A DNA stretch of 64,000 bases from Verrucosispora sp. NA02020 (GTDB lineage Bacteria > Actinomycetota > Actinomycetes > Mycobacteriales > Micromonosporaceae): assembly GCF_013364215.1 (NCBI RefSeq), contig NZ_CP054923.1, positions 1,364,001 to 1,428,000 of the forward strand, written 5' to 3'. Made by a program: the position numbers and the translations under genes. Below the pieces are notes generated by a model. The model was not told the origin of the DNA. It worked only from the letters and a program-made list of their open reading frames with translations, and made no database searches. Positions 56,716 to 63,580 of the stretch are shown here, one piece after another (the first letter of the stretch is position 1; the number at the start of each line of letters is the position of its first letter).

Positions 56716-56867
56716 GTCCGTGACGGACCGGCCATGGCCCCGACGACGATGTTCGCGGAAACTGTTATCTCGTCCCGGGCCTGCCGTCTCCTGTGGGGAG
56801 GCATCGGCCGGATGTCCCGTCCGCCCGGAGTGCGGTGGCGGTGCGAACACGTGGAGGAGTGGCGGGT

Positions 56868-58886
56868 ATGCGGGTCGGAGACCGGGGTGGCGCGGACGCG
56901 AGTCTGGTGATCGCCGCCCGCGCCGGTGAACCACAGGCGCTCGACGCCCTGCTCGCGGCCTCCCTGCCGCTGGTCTACAACGTGGTCGGCCGGGCGTTGC
57001 GCGGGCACGCCGACGTCGACGACGTGGTCCAGGAGACGCTGCTGCGCGTCGTGCGGTACCTGACCGAGTTGCGGGACCCGACCGCCTACCGGTCGTGGCT
57101 GATCGCCATCGCGGTCCGGCAGGTCCGTGATCGCGAACAGCGGCGCCGTGCCGCGCAGGAGCACACCTCGGACCTCGACGTCGCGTACGGGGTGCCGGAT
57201 CCGGCGGCGGACTTCGCCGGCCTGACGATCCTCCGGCTCGGCCTGACCGACCAGCGGCGGGAGGTCGCCGAGGCGACCCGCTGGCTGGATCCCGACGACC
57301 AGACGTTGCTGGCGCTCTGGTGGCTGGAGTCGACCGGCGACCTGGACCGCACCGAGCTGGCCGCCGCCCTCGGCCTCACACCCGCCCACGCGGCGGTGCG
57401 GGTGCAGCGGATGAAGGAGCAGTTGGAGGTGGCCCGGAGCGTGGTCCATGCGCTGCGGACCGCCGACTGCGCCGGGATGCAGGAGCTGACCCGGGGCTGG
57501 GACGGCCGGCCCCACCCGCTGTGGCGCAAGCGCCTGGCCCGCCACGTCCGCGAGTGCGGCCGGTGCGGCGGGTCCGGCGGCGAGCTGTTCCCGGTCGACC
57601 GGCTGCTCGCCGGGCTCCCGCTGCTGCCCGTCCCGCCCGGCACCGCCGAGAACGCGCTGGCCCACCTGTCGATGTCACCCACCCTGACCTCGAACGTCGC
57701 GTCGGTCACCCCACGGGCCGGCGTGGTGAGCCCCCACGCCCCGACCTCGGACCCGACGGTCGAGGCGTTCGGGCGCACCGCCGTCGTGCAGACCGACGGC
57801 GGTGCGCCCGGGGGTGCGCACGCGGCCCGCCCGCGTGGGCTGGCCGGCCTCCTGCCGGCCGGAGCGGCAAAGGTCGCCGGGCCGGTCGCCGCCGCCGTCG
57901 CGGTGGCGGTCCTCGCGGTCGGGGCGATCGTGGTCGCGCAGCGGACCGGCCCCACGCCCGCACCGGCGGCGCCACCACCGCCGGTGGCGGCACCGGCGTT
58001 CGAGGCGTCCTCGCCGCCACCCTCCCCGGATGCGACGGTCACGCCCTCCGCGACACCGACCACTCCGGGCGCCGGCACGTCACCGTCGGCGAGCCCGTCG
58101 TCGCGGCCGACACCCACGGCGGTACGCCCGGCCGCGCCGCCGCCCGCCGCCACCTCGACGAAGAAGGGCGTCGGCGTCTGGACCTTCGACGGGGTCGACC
58201 GGGCGCTCGCCGACTCCGGGGCGAGTTGGTACTACACCTGGAACGTCGCGCACCCCGGCGTCACCACCCCGCGCGGCAGCGAGTTCGTGCCGATGATCTG
58301 GGGCGCGGACAGCGTCACCGCCGCCAACCTGCGGCAGGCCAGGCAGAACGGGAAGTACCTGCTCGGGTTCAACGAGCCGGACCTGAACGGTCAGGCGAAC
58401 ATGAGCGTGGAGCGGGCGCTGGACCTGTGGCCGCAGTTGGAGGCGACCGGCCTGCCGCTGGGTAGCCCGGCGGTGGCCTGGGGCGGGGACCGGCCGGGGG
58501 AGTGGCTCGACCGTTTCATGGCCGGCGTGAAGGAACGCGGGCTGCGGGTCGACTTCATCGCCCTGCACTGGTACGGCGGCGACTTCCGCACCGCCAACGC
58601 GGTGGGCCAGCTCCGCTCCTACCTCCAGGCGGTGCACGACCGGTACGGGCTGCCGATCTGGCTCACCGAGTTCGCGCTGATCGACTTCTCGAACGGGGTC
58701 CGCTTCCCGACCCAGGCGCAGCAGGCGGCGTTCCTCACCGAGGCGACCCGGATGTTGCGTGGACTGCCCTGGCTGCACCGGTACGCCTGGTTCGGGCTGC
58801 CCGCCAGCGACAAGGACCAGACCGGCCTGTTCCGTCCCGGCGGCCAGACCACCGAGGTCGGGCGCGCCTTCCGGGCCGCCCGCTGA
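56868..58886 (+). CDS. Fusion: ECF sigma factor, zinc motif, membrane helix and Asl1-like glycoside hydrolase domain
   Basis: A 672-residue chimera. Residues about 25-92 are sigma region 2 (ALRGHADVDDVVQETLLRVV, YRSWLIAIAVRQVRDRE) and 140-190 region 4 (LDPDDQTLLALWWLE, TELAAALGLTPAHAAVRVQR). HVRECGRC at 226-233 is an anti-sigma-type H-x3-C-x2-C motif. Residues 337-357 are one membrane helix and 361-432 a Pro/Thr/Ser linker. Residues 433-672 are a TIM-barrel glycosyl hydrolase (PF11790-like) with likely catalytic Glu503 in GFNEPD and Glu601 in WLTEFA, plus ALHWYGG. Predicted topology puts sigma inside and the hydrolase outside. GGAGGAG lies 8 nt before the ATG at 56868. Confidence 0.85.
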   Translation: MRVGDRGGADASLVIAARAGEPQALDALLAASLPLVYNVVGRALRGHADVDDVVQETLLRVVRYLTELRDPTAYRSWLIAIAVRQVRDREQRRRAAQEHTSDLDVAYGVPDPAADFAGLTILRLGLTDQRREVAEATRWLDPDDQTLLALWWLESTGDLDRTELAAALGLTPAHAAVRVQRMKEQLEVARSVVHALRTADCAGMQELTRGWDGRPHPLWRKRLARHVRECGRCGGSGGELFPVDRLLAGLPLLPVPPGTAENALAHLSMSPTLTSNVASVTPRAGVVSPHAPTSDPTVEAFGRTAVVQTDGGAPGGAHAARPRGLAGLLPAGAAKVAGPVAAAVAVAVLAVGAIVVAQRTGPTPAPAAPPPPVAAPAFEASSPPPSPDATVTPSATPTTPGAGTSPSASPSSRPTPTAVRPAAPPPAATSTKKGVGVWTFDGVDRALADSGASWYYTWNVAHPGVTTPRGSEFVPMIWGADSVTAANLRQARQNGKYLLGFNEPDLNGQANMSVERALDLWPQLEATGLPLGSPAVAWGGDRPGEWLDRFMAGVKERGLRVDFIALHWYGGDFRTANAVGQLRSYLQAVHDRYGLPIWLTEFALIDFSNGVRFPTQAQQAAFLTEATRMLRGLPWLHRYAWFGLPASDKDQTGLFRPGGQTTEVGRAFRAAR

Positions 58887-60666: not shown

Positions 60667-61938
60667 CTACCGGGCCGGGGTGCCCGCCGGTTCCAGGTCC
60701 GGCGCGTGCGGCGGCGCGGTGTCCCGGCCGCTGGGCATCGGATAGAGCAGGTGCAGCAGCGGCCCGGCCATCGCGGTCGTCACCAGGGCCATCACCACCA
60801 TCGAGGAGTAGAGCTGGCCGTCGAGCATGCCGAGCTCCAGACCGACGGCGAGGATGATCAGCTCGGTCAGGCCACGCGTGTTCATCAGGACCGCGAGTGC
60901 GCCCGCCGGTCGCGGGGCCACCCCGCTGAGGCGGGCGGCGGCGAAGGCGCCGACGAACTTGCCGCCCACCGCGACCGTCAGGATGAGCCCCAGCTCGATC
61001 GCGTCGCCGACGTCCATGGCGGACAGGTCGACCTTCAGGCCGGCGACCACGAAGAAGATCGGCAGCAGCAACATGCTGTTCAGGTGCGTGATGCGCTCGC
61101 TGACCAGGGCCGTGACGCCCTGTTCGGGCAGGACGGAGCGGGGCATCACCACGCCGAACAGGAAGGCGCCGAAGATGAAGTGCAGCCCGATCCAGTCGGT
61201 GAACGCCGCCGACAGCAGCAGCCCGACCAATGTGATCACCAACGCCGCCGGCCGGGGCGGACCGCCCTCGGTGCGTTCGGCCAGCAGCCGGGCCACCAGC
61301 GGTCGGACGACCAGGAACATGGCCAGCACGTACGGCACGAAGAGCAGCACCCAGACGGATCCGGCACCGGCCCCGGCGACCGCGACCACGACGGCGAGCA
61401 GCGTCCAGGCGAGCACGTCGTCGATGGCGGCACAGGCCAGCGCCACGCTGCCCAGCCAGGTGCGGCTCAGGCCCCGGTCGATGAGGATGCGGGCCAGCAC
61501 CGGGAACGCGGTCACCGACATGGCCGCCCCCATGAACAGCACGAAGCCCAGCTTGCTGTCGGTGGGGTGTCGGGGGAACAGGTAGACGGCCAGCAGCGCG
61601 CCGAGCCCGAACGGCACGGCGATGGAGCCGGCGGCGACCGTGCCGGCCACCATCCGTCGTCCCCGCAGCAGGCCGGCGTTCAGCTCCGTCCCGACGGTGA
61701 ACATGAACAGCACGACGCCGATCGTGGCCAGGGCGGTCAGGATCGGCCGGATGTCGGTCGGGAAGAGCGTGTCGGAGATGAGGCCGTTGAACAGCGTCGG
61801 GCCGAGCAGGATGCCCACCAGCACCTCACCGATCACGGGAGGTTGCCGCAACCGCCGGGCCACCGCGCCCGCCCCGAAGGCGAGCAGCGAGATCAGGGCC
61901 AGCGCGAGGAGGAGTGTCGGGACCTGATGCGAAGACAT
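60667..61938 (-). CDS. Cation:proton antiporter (CPA2 family)
   Basis: A 423-residue membrane antiporter with about 12 helices. Family marks are RQPPVIGEVLVGILLGPTLF, FMFTVGTELNAGLL, and the ion-binding ALACAAIDDVLAW with the Asp-Asp pair, then FGAFLFGVVMPRS and MNTRGLTELIIL. It exchanges Na+ or K+ for H+ across the cytoplasmic membrane. No TrkA-N domain is attached. CPA2 antiporters of this form often sit at the edges of actinomycete natural-product clusters. Confidence 0.9.
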   Translation of the reverse strand: MSSHQVPTLLLALALISLLAFGAGAVARRLRQPPVIGEVLVGILLGPTLFNGLISDTLFPTDIRPILTALATIGVVLFMFTVGTELNAGLLRGRRMVAGTVAAGSIAVPFGLGALLAVYLFPRHPTDSKLGFVLFMGAAMSVTAFPVLARILIDRGLSRTWLGSVALACAAIDDVLAWTLLAVVVAVAGAGAGSVWVLLFVPYVLAMFLVVRPLVARLLAERTEGGPPRPAALVITLVGLLLSAAFTDWIGLHFIFGAFLFGVVMPRSVLPEQGVTALVSERITHLNSMLLLPIFFVVAGLKVDLSAMDVGDAIELGLILTVAVGGKFVGAFAAARLSGVAPRPAGALAVLMNTRGLTELIILAVGLELGMLDGQLYSSMVVMALVTTAMAGPLLHLLYPMPSGRDTAPPHAPDLEPAGTPAR

Positions 61939-62017
61939 GGGCGTCTGTCTCCTGGTGAGAACGGCGGGTTGTCAGGCGCCGGGAGGAGCCGGTCCGGGCG
62001 GGAGCGGCGGGCGGTGC

Positions 62018-63328
62018 CTAGCGGTCCGAGGTCGGCGTCACGACCGGCTTGGCGGCGGCGGCCAGTACGTCGCCGGCCGGCACGTCGGTGAGCTGCGCGC
62101 CGTCGGGCTGCCTGTCGCCGGCCTGCGCGTCGGTGAGCTGCCCGTCGGAATCGGTGGGCTGCGCGGGCCGGGTGACCAGGTAGACGGCGGAGACGGTGAC
62201 GGCGGCGGCCACGATGCCCAGCAGCAGCCGGTAGTCGAGCAGGGCGATGAGGGCCGCGCCGACGGCGATCGACAGGGTCTGCGGCACGGTCACCGCGAAC
62301 TCGAAGGCCGCCGACGCGCGGCCGAGCAGGTGCTCCGGCGTACGGCGTTGCAGGGCGGTGGTGGCGCCGACGACGAGCCACGGGATGCAGAGGCCGAGCA
62401 GGGCCATCGCGGCGACCACCAGCGGCGTCACCTGGATCATCAGCAGCATGCTGGAGACGGCGACCATCGCCAGGCCGATGATCACGGTCATGCTCTCACT
62501 GGTCCGGCGCAGGACCGCACCCGCCGAGACCCCGCCGATGATGGTCCCGACCGCCTGCGCCGCGCCGAGTACACCGAGGAACGTCGGCTCGCGGTCCAGC
62601 CCGGCGGTGACCACGGCCAGCCCGATCGCCTCGAAGAAGCCCAGCACGAGCATGGCCAGTCCACAGGAGACGACGAGCTGGCGCAGCGTCACGGTGCGGC
62701 CGATGAAGCGCAGCCCGGCGGTGATCTCGGTGCGCCAGGGTTCGCCGGACGGGACCGGCTTCGCCTCGTCCACCTTGATCGCGAGCAGGGCTCCGGCGGC
62801 CAGGACGAACAGTGCGGCGTCGATGAGGATGACCGCCTCCGGGCCGAACCAGGCGAACAGACCCGCGCCGACCACCGGTGCGAAGACCCGGATCAGGCCA
62901 CGGACCGACTGGATGAGTCCGTTGGCGTCGCCCAGCAGGTCCTTCGACACGAGGGAGGGCAGCAGGGCGAGCTGGGCGGGACCGGTCACGCTGCCCAGCG
63001 CGCCGTAGGTGAACATCACCACGTAGACGAGCCAGACATGGTGGGCGCCGCCGACCAGGAGCAGCAGCAGGACGACGGCGGCGAGGGCGAGGTTCGCGCC
63101 GATGAGCAGGGGGCGTCGGCGTACCCGGTCGGAGAGCAGCCCGGCGGCGGGCAGCAGAAGGCTGCCGGCGGCGAAGGAGAACATCACCAGGGCGGCGGCC
63201 GAGGTGCTGCCACTTATCGTCTTGACCCAGATCGTCATGGCGAGGAACAGCGCGAAGTCGCCGAGGTTCGACGCCGTGTCCGCCAATACGAAAAGCCGCA
63301 TCCGTCGCGTGGCAAGAATCCGTGACAT
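62018..63328 (-). CDS. MFS exporter (DHA3 type)
   Basis: A 436-residue major facilitator of the macrolide/multidrug-exporter (DHA3, MFS_3) kind: TASNLGDFALFLAMTIWVKT at helix 1, FAAGSLLLPAAGLLSDRVRR and GPAQLALLPSLVSKDLLGDA. About 12 hydrophobic segments are followed by a 45-residue hydrophilic tail. ATG at 63328 is supported by AAGGAGAAGG; a longer frame to 63430 has no ribosome-binding site. It is transcribed like the antiporter, 79 bp upstream of it, so the two may be one operon. Confidence 0.88.
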   Translation of the reverse strand: MSRILATRRMRLFVLADTASNLGDFALFLAMTIWVKTISGSTSAAALVMFSFAAGSLLLPAAGLLSDRVRRRPLLIGANLALAAVVLLLLLVGGAHHVWLVYVVMFTYGALGSVTGPAQLALLPSLVSKDLLGDANGLIQSVRGLIRVFAPVVGAGLFAWFGPEAVILIDAALFVLAAGALLAIKVDEAKPVPSGEPWRTEITAGLRFIGRTVTLRQLVVSCGLAMLVLGFFEAIGLAVVTAGLDREPTFLGVLGAAQAVGTIIGGVSAGAVLRRTSESMTVIIGLAMVAVSSMLLMIQVTPLVVAAMALLGLCIPWLVVGATTALQRRTPEHLLGRASAAFEFAVTVPQTLSIAVGAALIALLDYRLLLGIVAAAVTVSAVYLVTRPAQPTDSDGQLTDAQAGDRQPDGAQLTDVPAGDVLAAAAKPVVTPTSDR

Positions 63329-63580
63329 GTCCTTCTCCTTGATAAAGGGCGCGCCGACGCGGGTGCGGCCTAAAGGCTGCCCCCCAAGGGTCACACAAAA
63401 GACCTGCTGAAGGGGCGGATCCGTTTCCACTTGGCACAGTTCTGCCAGCGTGCCGCCGGCTGCTTCGTTGGCGGGTGCGCTCCGGAACTAGGCAAAAACG
63501 GCCCTAAGATGACGAGGTCCTCGGGGTATCTGACCCAATCTTCCATGGCATGTCCGATTGGTTCCCCCGGTCTCTGGCCG
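63329..63580. other. Intergenic region between divergent genes
   Basis: The 423-bp gap from 63329 to 63751 holds no supportable gene. It is less GC-rich than its surroundings and carries the promoter for the rightward gene at 63581-63610. Its left part presumably holds the MFS promoter, which I could not define. Confidence 0.5.

What the first reader, a model, noticed from the sequence alone, without database searches (positions are those of the whole stretch)
56868..58886. One polypeptide joins a sigma factor, an anti-sigma-like zinc motif, a membrane helix and a glycoside hydrolase
The ORF is continuous, with sigma regions 2 and 4, then H-x3-C-x2-C, one membrane helix, a Pro/Thr linker and a TIM-barrel hydrolase with NEPD and TEF glutamates. 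Sigma factors with C-terminal regulatory or carbohydrate-binding extensions are known in actinobacteria (from memory). A fused, apparently catalytic hydrolase suggests a membrane-tethered sigma that senses or processes cell-wall glycan and is then released, perhaps by proteolysis. A secreted beta-sandwich protein and a secreted protease lie next door.
Basis: partly seen in the sequence, partly recalled or inferred. Interest (0 to 1): 0.82.

Follow-up and report, generated by a model that had tools for sequence, protein, structure and literature searches.

The report
Sigma factor fused to glucanase sensor
This actinobacterial gene joins a transcription switch, its own brake, a membrane anchor and an outward-facing enzyme that should grip and cut beta-1,3-glucan, and relatives carry the same promoter before secreted glucan-attacking proteins, so it is probably a one-protein detector of fungal-type cell walls.

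Summary

New here: a bipartite promoter, TGTTATC-N15/16-CGTCTCC, precedes the sigma gene (window 56763-56791). In relatives it also precedes sigma-less GH128 genes, neighbouring thaumatin-like (PR-5) genes, and some GH16 and DUF1996 genes, but only 3 of 1212 other genes in the loci scanned. Best explanation: an autoregulated transmembrane sigma factor that senses beta-1,3-glucan and switches on secreted glucan-attacking proteins. Ligand, release step and transcription are untested. In the window's own genome only the self-promoter is a convincing target. A sister species lacks the sigma part at the same locus but keeps promoter and glucanase.

The parts
56763..56769 (+). -35-like element TGTTATC of the predicted sigma-dependent (self) promoter
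   Evidence: Dyad enrichment over 74 non-redundant upstream regions, PWM score 35.4 (this site is in the training set), exact hit in own genome
56785..56791 (+). -10-like element CGTCTCC, 15 nt after the -35 element
56853..56859 (+). GGAGGAG, likely ribosome-binding site
   Evidence: sequence read; role is inference
56868..58886 (+). sigma-GH128 fusion gene, 672 aa
56955..57149 (+). sigma-70 region 2 (residues 30-94)
   Evidence: Pfam PF04542 2.6e-9
57273..57437 (+). sigma region 4 / helix-turn-helix (residues about 136-190)
   Evidence: TIGR02937 covers 24-188; helices in AF2 model; profile match to ECF sigmas
57438..57617 (+). ZAS-like anti-sigma domain (residues 191-250) with ligands C201, H226, C230, C233
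   Evidence: invariant in the 24- and 63-sequence alignments; Pfam zf-HC2 does not reach significance
57882..57938 (+). single transmembrane helix (residues 339-357)
   Evidence: hydropathy 2.64, and helix 342-357 at low confidence in AF2 model
57948..58157 (+). Pro/Ala/Thr/Ser-rich linker (residues 361-430)
   Evidence: composition and low conservation
58167..58883 (+). GH128 subgroup I endo-beta-1,3-glucanase domain (residues 434-672)
58374..58376 (+). catalytic E503, aligned with E102 of AmGH128_I
   Evidence: E in 59 of 59 sigma-linked and 19 of 19 sigma-less rows
58668..58670 (+). catalytic E601, aligned with E199 of AmGH128_I
   Evidence: E in 59 of 59 sigma-linked and 19 of 19 sigma-less rows

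Best explanation
The protein is a one-component transmembrane ECF sigma factor for beta-1,3-glucan. The cytoplasmic sigma part is held inactive by the fused zinc (ZAS-like) domain. One helix crosses the membrane, and a Pro-rich linker carries a GH128 endo-beta-1,3-glucanase through the wall. Glucan binding, and probably cleavage, at the ectodomain leads to release of the sigma part, most likely by proteolysis at or near the membrane. The freed sigma recruits RNA polymerase to TGTTATC-N15/16-CGTCTCC promoters: its own gene (positive feedback) and, in relatives, secreted thaumatin-like, GH128, GH16-lectin and F5/8C-DUF1996 genes. Shown by sequence: architecture, GH128 identity, intact catalytic residues, conservation, promoter and its gene associations. 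Inferred: ligand, inhibition by the ZAS domain, proteolytic release, sigma-promoter match.
Against: No experiment. The PWM was trained on 37 sigma upstream regions. In the window's own genome the strict pattern occurs twice: the self-promoter and one site with no convincing target. That genome has no thaumatin and one GH128, so the effector arm is inferred from relatives. Of 19 hits examined in other genomes, 10 had no evident glycan-active gene downstream, and 78 GTTGTC-type rows were not followed. The same promoter also precedes chassis relatives with other ectodomains (CAP; an unassigned one), so promoter identity alone does not prove glucan as the signal. Distant thaumatins, three of them joined to or beside GH128, lack the motif: 0 of 20. 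Most fusion loci (34 of 45) have no thaumatin next door. Support for the brake is weak: the sigma+ZAS model resembles some anti-sigma-bound sigmas (TM 0.74-0.78) but others only at 0.41-0.47, and no match reached E 0.001.
Confidence: 0.66

Rival explanations
1. The GH128 part is mainly an effector: a cell-surface glucanase whose gene carries its own sigma factor for dosage control, and the sigma responds to something else (envelope stress, membrane state).
For: Catalytic residues invariant; sigma-less copies keep promoter, membrane helix, linker and enzyme, including a sister-species deletion at the same locus and a clade of six Micromonospora copies.
Against: The same sigma-ZAS-membrane chassis carries different ectodomains (GH128, CAP, two unassigned), the pattern expected of a receptor. 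Several genes sharing the promoter match the GH128 substrate.
Confidence: 0.17
2. It senses a non-fungal beta-1,3-glucan (plant callose, algal laminarin, bacterial curdlan) as food or plant contact; the mechanism is as in the best explanation.
For: GH128 subgroup I is an endo-beta-1,3-glucanase whatever the source; the GH16+ricin-lectin target also fits nutrition.
Against: Thaumatin-like proteins and DUF1996 (a domain studied in fungi; title and abstract start seen) point to fungal walls, though their bacterial roles are unknown.
Confidence: 0.25
3. It monitors the cell's own envelope or development, like the ECF52 sigma SCO4117.
For: SCO4117 has the same sigma-zinc-membrane-Pro plan and controls differentiation.
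Against: SCO4117 carries a carbohydrate-binding module, not GH128. Only 77 of 150 sampled Micromonosporaceae and 66 of 394 class genomes have any PF11790 match, and not all of those are fusions, which is patchy for a housekeeping role.
Confidence: 0.08
4. Artefact: two genes fused by an assembly or frame error.
For: None found for the window. Two relatives (L032, L048) are split between frames.
Against: Same two domains in all 120 listed homologues, from many genera.
Confidence: 0.01

Closest known systems
ECF52 / ECF53 (and ECF48) sigma factors with C-terminal anti-sigma extensions
   Same: Actinobacterial; sigma, zinc finger, membrane helix, Pro-rich extension; a review states that some ECF52 and ECF53 proteins have predicted glycosyl hydrolase and carbohydrate-binding domains, unvalidated; proteolytic release expected.
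   Different: SCO4117, the studied ECF52 protein, has a carbohydrate-binding module and a different putative promoter (CSGYN-17bp-SRHA). GH128, this promoter and its target genes are not in the passages I read.
SigI/RsgI polysaccharide sensors of Clostridium thermocellum
   Same: Membrane protein with cytoplasmic anti-sigma part, one helix and an outer GH10, CBM or peptidase-like sensor; substrate binding frees sigma by stepwise proteolysis (introduction read).
   Different: Two separate proteins, a different sigma group, and a periplasmic self-cleaving domain for which I found no counterpart here.
GH128 subgroup I endo-beta-1,3-glucanase AmGH128_I (Amycolatopsis mediterranei, 6uaq)
   Same: Fold, 56-59% identity, both catalytic glutamates.
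   Different: Solved chain is the enzyme alone (263 aa), with no sigma part.
IutY (ECF243) of Pseudomonas putida
   Same: Sigma fused to its membrane anti-sigma and freed by proteolysis.
   Different: Signal is a siderophore; no enzyme ectodomain mentioned in the passage read.

Membership tests
ECF sigma factor | sigma region 2 | tested here: met
   PF04542 2.6e-9, above the curated cut-off
ECF sigma factor | regions 2 and 4 only, sigma70-ECF profile | tested here: met
   TIGR02937 24-188, 55.8 bits against cut-off 42.9; A2 profile matches ECF structures over positions 3-184
ECF sigma factor | Pfam region 4 named hit | tested here: inconclusive
   only weak generic HTH matches within residues 141-188
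ZAS anti-sigma domain | H-x3-C-x2-C plus an upstream ligand | tested here: met
   C201, H226, C230, C233 invariant in 63 sequences; in the 121-protein alignment C201, C230, C233 at 1.00 and H226 at 0.99
ZAS anti-sigma domain | zf-HC2 profile | tested here: inconclusive
   1 of 24 members, E 0.031; best PDB sequence match for residues 201-258 only E 0.9
ZAS anti-sigma domain | inhibits the sigma part | not testable with these tools
   AF2 model ranks nearest to some anti-sigma-bound sigmas, but others score low
GH128 subgroup I | fold and catalytic Glu pair | tested here: met
GH128 subgroup I | endo-beta-1,3-glucanase activity | not testable with these tools
   needs assay
ECF52 | sigma-zinc-membrane-Pro-rich extension | tested here: met
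   compared with the description
ECF52 | C-terminal carbohydrate-binding module | tested here: not met
   GH128 instead
ECF53 | placement in the ECF53 phylogenetic group | not testable with these tools
   no ECF group profiles; classification papers not held
RsgI anti-sigma | periplasmic self-cleaving domain after the helix | tested here: not met
   only a low-complexity linker lies between helix and GH128, and no Pfam domain there; a diverged short cleavage motif was not sought

The most novel reading that the evidence does not exclude
Actinobacteria have a one-protein, receptor-like detector of fungal wall glucan in which the catalytic act of a beta-1,3-glucanase ectodomain is part of sensing.
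Probability: 0.38. Interest if true: 0.86.

Novelty: new variant of a known kind. Interest (0 to 1): 0.68.

Why it matters
What the GH- and CBM-fused ECF sigma factors sense, and what they control, was open: a 2024 review notes that experimental validation had yet to be performed. A named substrate class, a promoter with both boxes, and a small set of candidate targets turn this into a directly testable circuit. If correct, actinobacteria detect beta-1,3-glucan with an enzyme wired straight to transcription, and deploy thaumatin-like proteins best known (from memory) from plant antifungal defence. The promoter also offers a reporter for beta-1,3-glucan.

Tried and rejected
The window's CarboxypepD_reg protein and trypsin-type protease as partners: found beside the GH gene in 3 of 24 related loci printed (L083, L089, L093), and no second motif hit in the window. 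Rejected as parts.

Assembly artefact: rejected.

The second exact motif in the own genome (C1:2293454) as a target: it lies at the start region of a minus-strand ORF with no convincing plus-strand gene; probably chance.

All thaumatins as regulon members: rejected. Twenty thaumatin loci not beside a sigma fusion in the stretch fetched (17 with no GH128 in it, 3 with GH128 joined or beside) have no motif of score 10 or more. In the Micromonosporaceae sample only the two thaumatin genes of one genome (G061), of 16 hits in 14 genomes, lie by a fusion. In the class sample 7 of 394 genomes have a thaumatin: four with thaumatin and GH128 in open frames of the same length and place (two confirmed as one protein), one with both about 200 bp apart, one cut by contig ends, one next to two sigma fusions.

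Apparent thaumatin matches in L008 and L050 are short antisense overlaps from over-long ORF calls; dropped. L046 has a thaumatin next to a GH128 fragment at a contig end; not counted. Repeat loci: L096 repeats L009, L086 repeats L010, L087 repeats L047. One search included them (69 of 81 sigma genes, 9 of 14 thaumatins, 3 of 1242 others); one search repeats the count without them. Some thaumatin misses there (L019, L037, L049) come partly from over-long ORF starts; L019 has a hit of 31.2. Sigma misses at 13: tandem second copies (L009, L096), L061, L064. Cut by contig ends: L015, L017, L033, L035, L042, L045, L046. The tree dropped GH128 rows without a sigma that lie under 1.7 kb from a contig end, incomplete matches and rows with stops; its sigma label means a sigma match upstream within 2.6 kb, not one frame. 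The ACAD query was translated out of frame; synteny there rests.

Whole-protein AF2 model: pLDDT 65, used for GH128 and only as weak support for the membrane helix. No fold search was made on the ZAS part alone.

Full report
Observation. The ORF is real and continuous. It encodes an ECF sigma (TIGR02937 over its cut-off; Pfam region 2), a ZAS-like zinc motif with four invariant ligands (C201, H226, C230, C233), one hydrophobic helix near 339-357, a Pro-rich linker, and a hydrolase matching PF11790 at 2.4e-50. All 120 listed homologues (the best of 3980 above threshold; the first is the window's own or nearly so) carry both PF04542 and PF11790, in Micromonospora, Plantactinospora, Phytohabitans, Streptomyces, Actinacidiphila, Planotetraspora, Streptosporangium and others. 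This excludes a sequencing artefact.

The brake. A model of residues 1-258 (pLDDT 80, pTM 0.75) ranks nearest to sigma factors solved with bound anti-sigma (CnrH-CnrY; SigW-RsiW, TM 0.74-0.78 by target length), and RNA-polymerase-bound ECF sigmas score lower (for example 0.30-0.41). But other anti-sigma-bound sigmas (SigE-RseA, AlgU-MucA, SigK, BldN-RsbN) reach only 0.41-0.47, and no match reached E 0.001. This is suggestive only. The Pfam zinc-finger profile does not recognise the region.

The chassis is modular. Sigma-ZAS-helix-linker relatives end in a CAP domain (L066, L068, L071, L073), in a domain of about 200 aa with LFHVASGG[GL]RRMDD (L060, L061, L079) or in one of about 400 aa (L059, L063). 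The last two have no Pfam hit. The promoter motif is strong (31-41) before the four CAP members and L059 and L063, weak (about 15-16) before L060 and L079, and absent before L061.

Promoter. In 74 non-redundant regions upstream of sigma starts, the dyad GTTAT-N18-TCTC occurs in 27, against at most 8 for any dyad in five Markov shuffles. A relaxed form occurs in 37 of 74, with two adjacent spacings (27 and 10 regions), 41-122 bp before the aligned start. The consensus is TTTCTGTTATCC-N-CGTCTCCTGT. The window copy is TGTTATC 56763-56769, 15 nt, CGTCTCC 56785-56791. A PWM scan of 1.70 Mb gave 123 rows, that is 115 distinct sites, against 3 in one shuffled control. With repeat loci removed, a score of 17 or more is found upstream of 66 of 77 sigma genes (30 of 41 outside the 37 training loci), 12 of 21 sigma-less GH128 genes, 8 of 13 thaumatins and 3 of 1212 other genes. 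Two of those three are secreted-looking F5/8C-DUF1996 proteins (L026, L006).

Neighbours and regulon in relatives. Thaumatin genes lie beside 11 of 45 fusion loci (L002, L009, L019, L022, L030, L037, L040, L043, L049, L058, L064). In nine there is an upstream divergent copy; L058 has a convergent one and L064 has two upstream copies. Pfam confirms those tested: L002, L009, L022, L037, L043, L049, L058, L064; L019, L030 and L040 rest on tblastn. Four of the eleven are Planotetraspora species, so they are not all independent. Thaumatin is otherwise rare: 7 of 394 class genomes. In 24 chosen genomes the pattern GTTRTC-N15/17-GTCTCC gave 110 rows against 24 for the backward control (my sums). I count 32 GTTATC-type rows: 11 sit at fusions and 3 at sigma-less GH128 genes by position; the 78 GTTGTC-type rows were not followed. 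I fetched 20 regions; 19 held a scored hit: GH16 plus ricin lectin in three genomes, DUF1996 in two, and one each for F5/8C, CBM2, a GH128 gene and a fusion, that is 9 of 19; 10 showed no evident link. The negative control, 20 thaumatin loci without an adjacent fusion, gave 0 of 20. L099 has a GH128 gene directly downstream of a fusion.

Own genome. There is one PF11790 gene, no thaumatin and two exact motif hits, one being the self-promoter. The effector arm is therefore a statement about relatives. In the window species the circuit may consist of the receptor-enzyme itself plus targets with weaker promoters that the strict pattern misses.

Evolution. In the GH tree of 78 rows the sigma label changes 8 times (at least 6 forced by supported branches). 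The nearest relative, G172, aligns at about 91-93% nucleotide identity on both sides but lacks window 56838-57618 and 57708-57874, which removes sigma and zinc domains while motif, helix, linker and GH128 lie in one open frame of 395 aa. That frame begins upstream of the motif, so its true start is unknown, and one genome's assembly is the only witness. Six other Micromonospora sigma-less copies form a separate clade. So the enzyme can be kept without its sigma, which argues that catalysis itself is useful.

Literature. ECF48/52/53 are expected to be activated by proteolysis (passages read, PMC8999054). SCO4117 is the studied ECF52 (passages read, PMC5826349). A review says that some ECF52/53 proteins have predicted hydrolase domains without validation (passages read, PMC10766802). 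RsgI is the two-protein analogue (introduction read, PMC12203970). Searches for sigma factor with thaumatin, PF11790 or beta-glucan terms listed no title that describes this regulon (open-licence library only; top rows of the listings seen, not the papers). The original classification papers were not held. That plant thaumatin-like, CAP and beta-1,3-glucanase proteins are PR-5, PR-1 and PR-2, and that some thaumatin-like proteins bind beta-1,3-glucan, is recalled, not from a call.

Verdict. The architecture is a known predicted kind. The specific substrate class, the promoter and the target genes are new to me and make function testable.

Noticed in passing
L066, L068, L071, L073: Same sigma-ZAS-membrane chassis ends in a CAP (PF00188) domain and carries the same promoter motif.
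   Followed up: partly
L060:5595-7406, L061:2529-4202, L079:9959-11623: Same chassis with an ectodomain of about 200 aa (LFHVASGG[GL]RRMDD) that no Pfam model recognises.
   Followed up: partly
L059:3381-5846, L063:10001-12397: Same chassis with an unassigned ectodomain of about 400 aa, possibly beta-propeller-like (impression only).
   Followed up: no
L097:3945-5570 (-), L098:4038-5651 (+): Single secreted-looking proteins joining thaumatin and GH128 in a genus of another family (f21); no sigma match found beside them and no motif hit in those two loci.
   Followed up: partly
L133, L134, L135: Conserved copy of the promoter before a GH16 plus ricin-lectin gene in three genomes of one genus.
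   Followed up: yes
L044:5721-6770 (-): LPMO_10 plus CBM5/12 gene about 2 kb from a motif hit beside a fusion; link unproven.
   Followed up: partly
L093 (G172): Sigma-less GH128 keeps the promoter although PF11790 finds no other GH128 in that genome; which sigma would use it is unknown.
   Followed up: partly
L032, L048: Streptomyces loci where the sigma part and the GH128 part lie in different frames.
   Followed up: partly
window 60667-63430 (-): Two ORFs of 423 and 470 aa (first looks like a Na+/H+ antiporter, by eye only); syntenic in L093.
   Followed up: no
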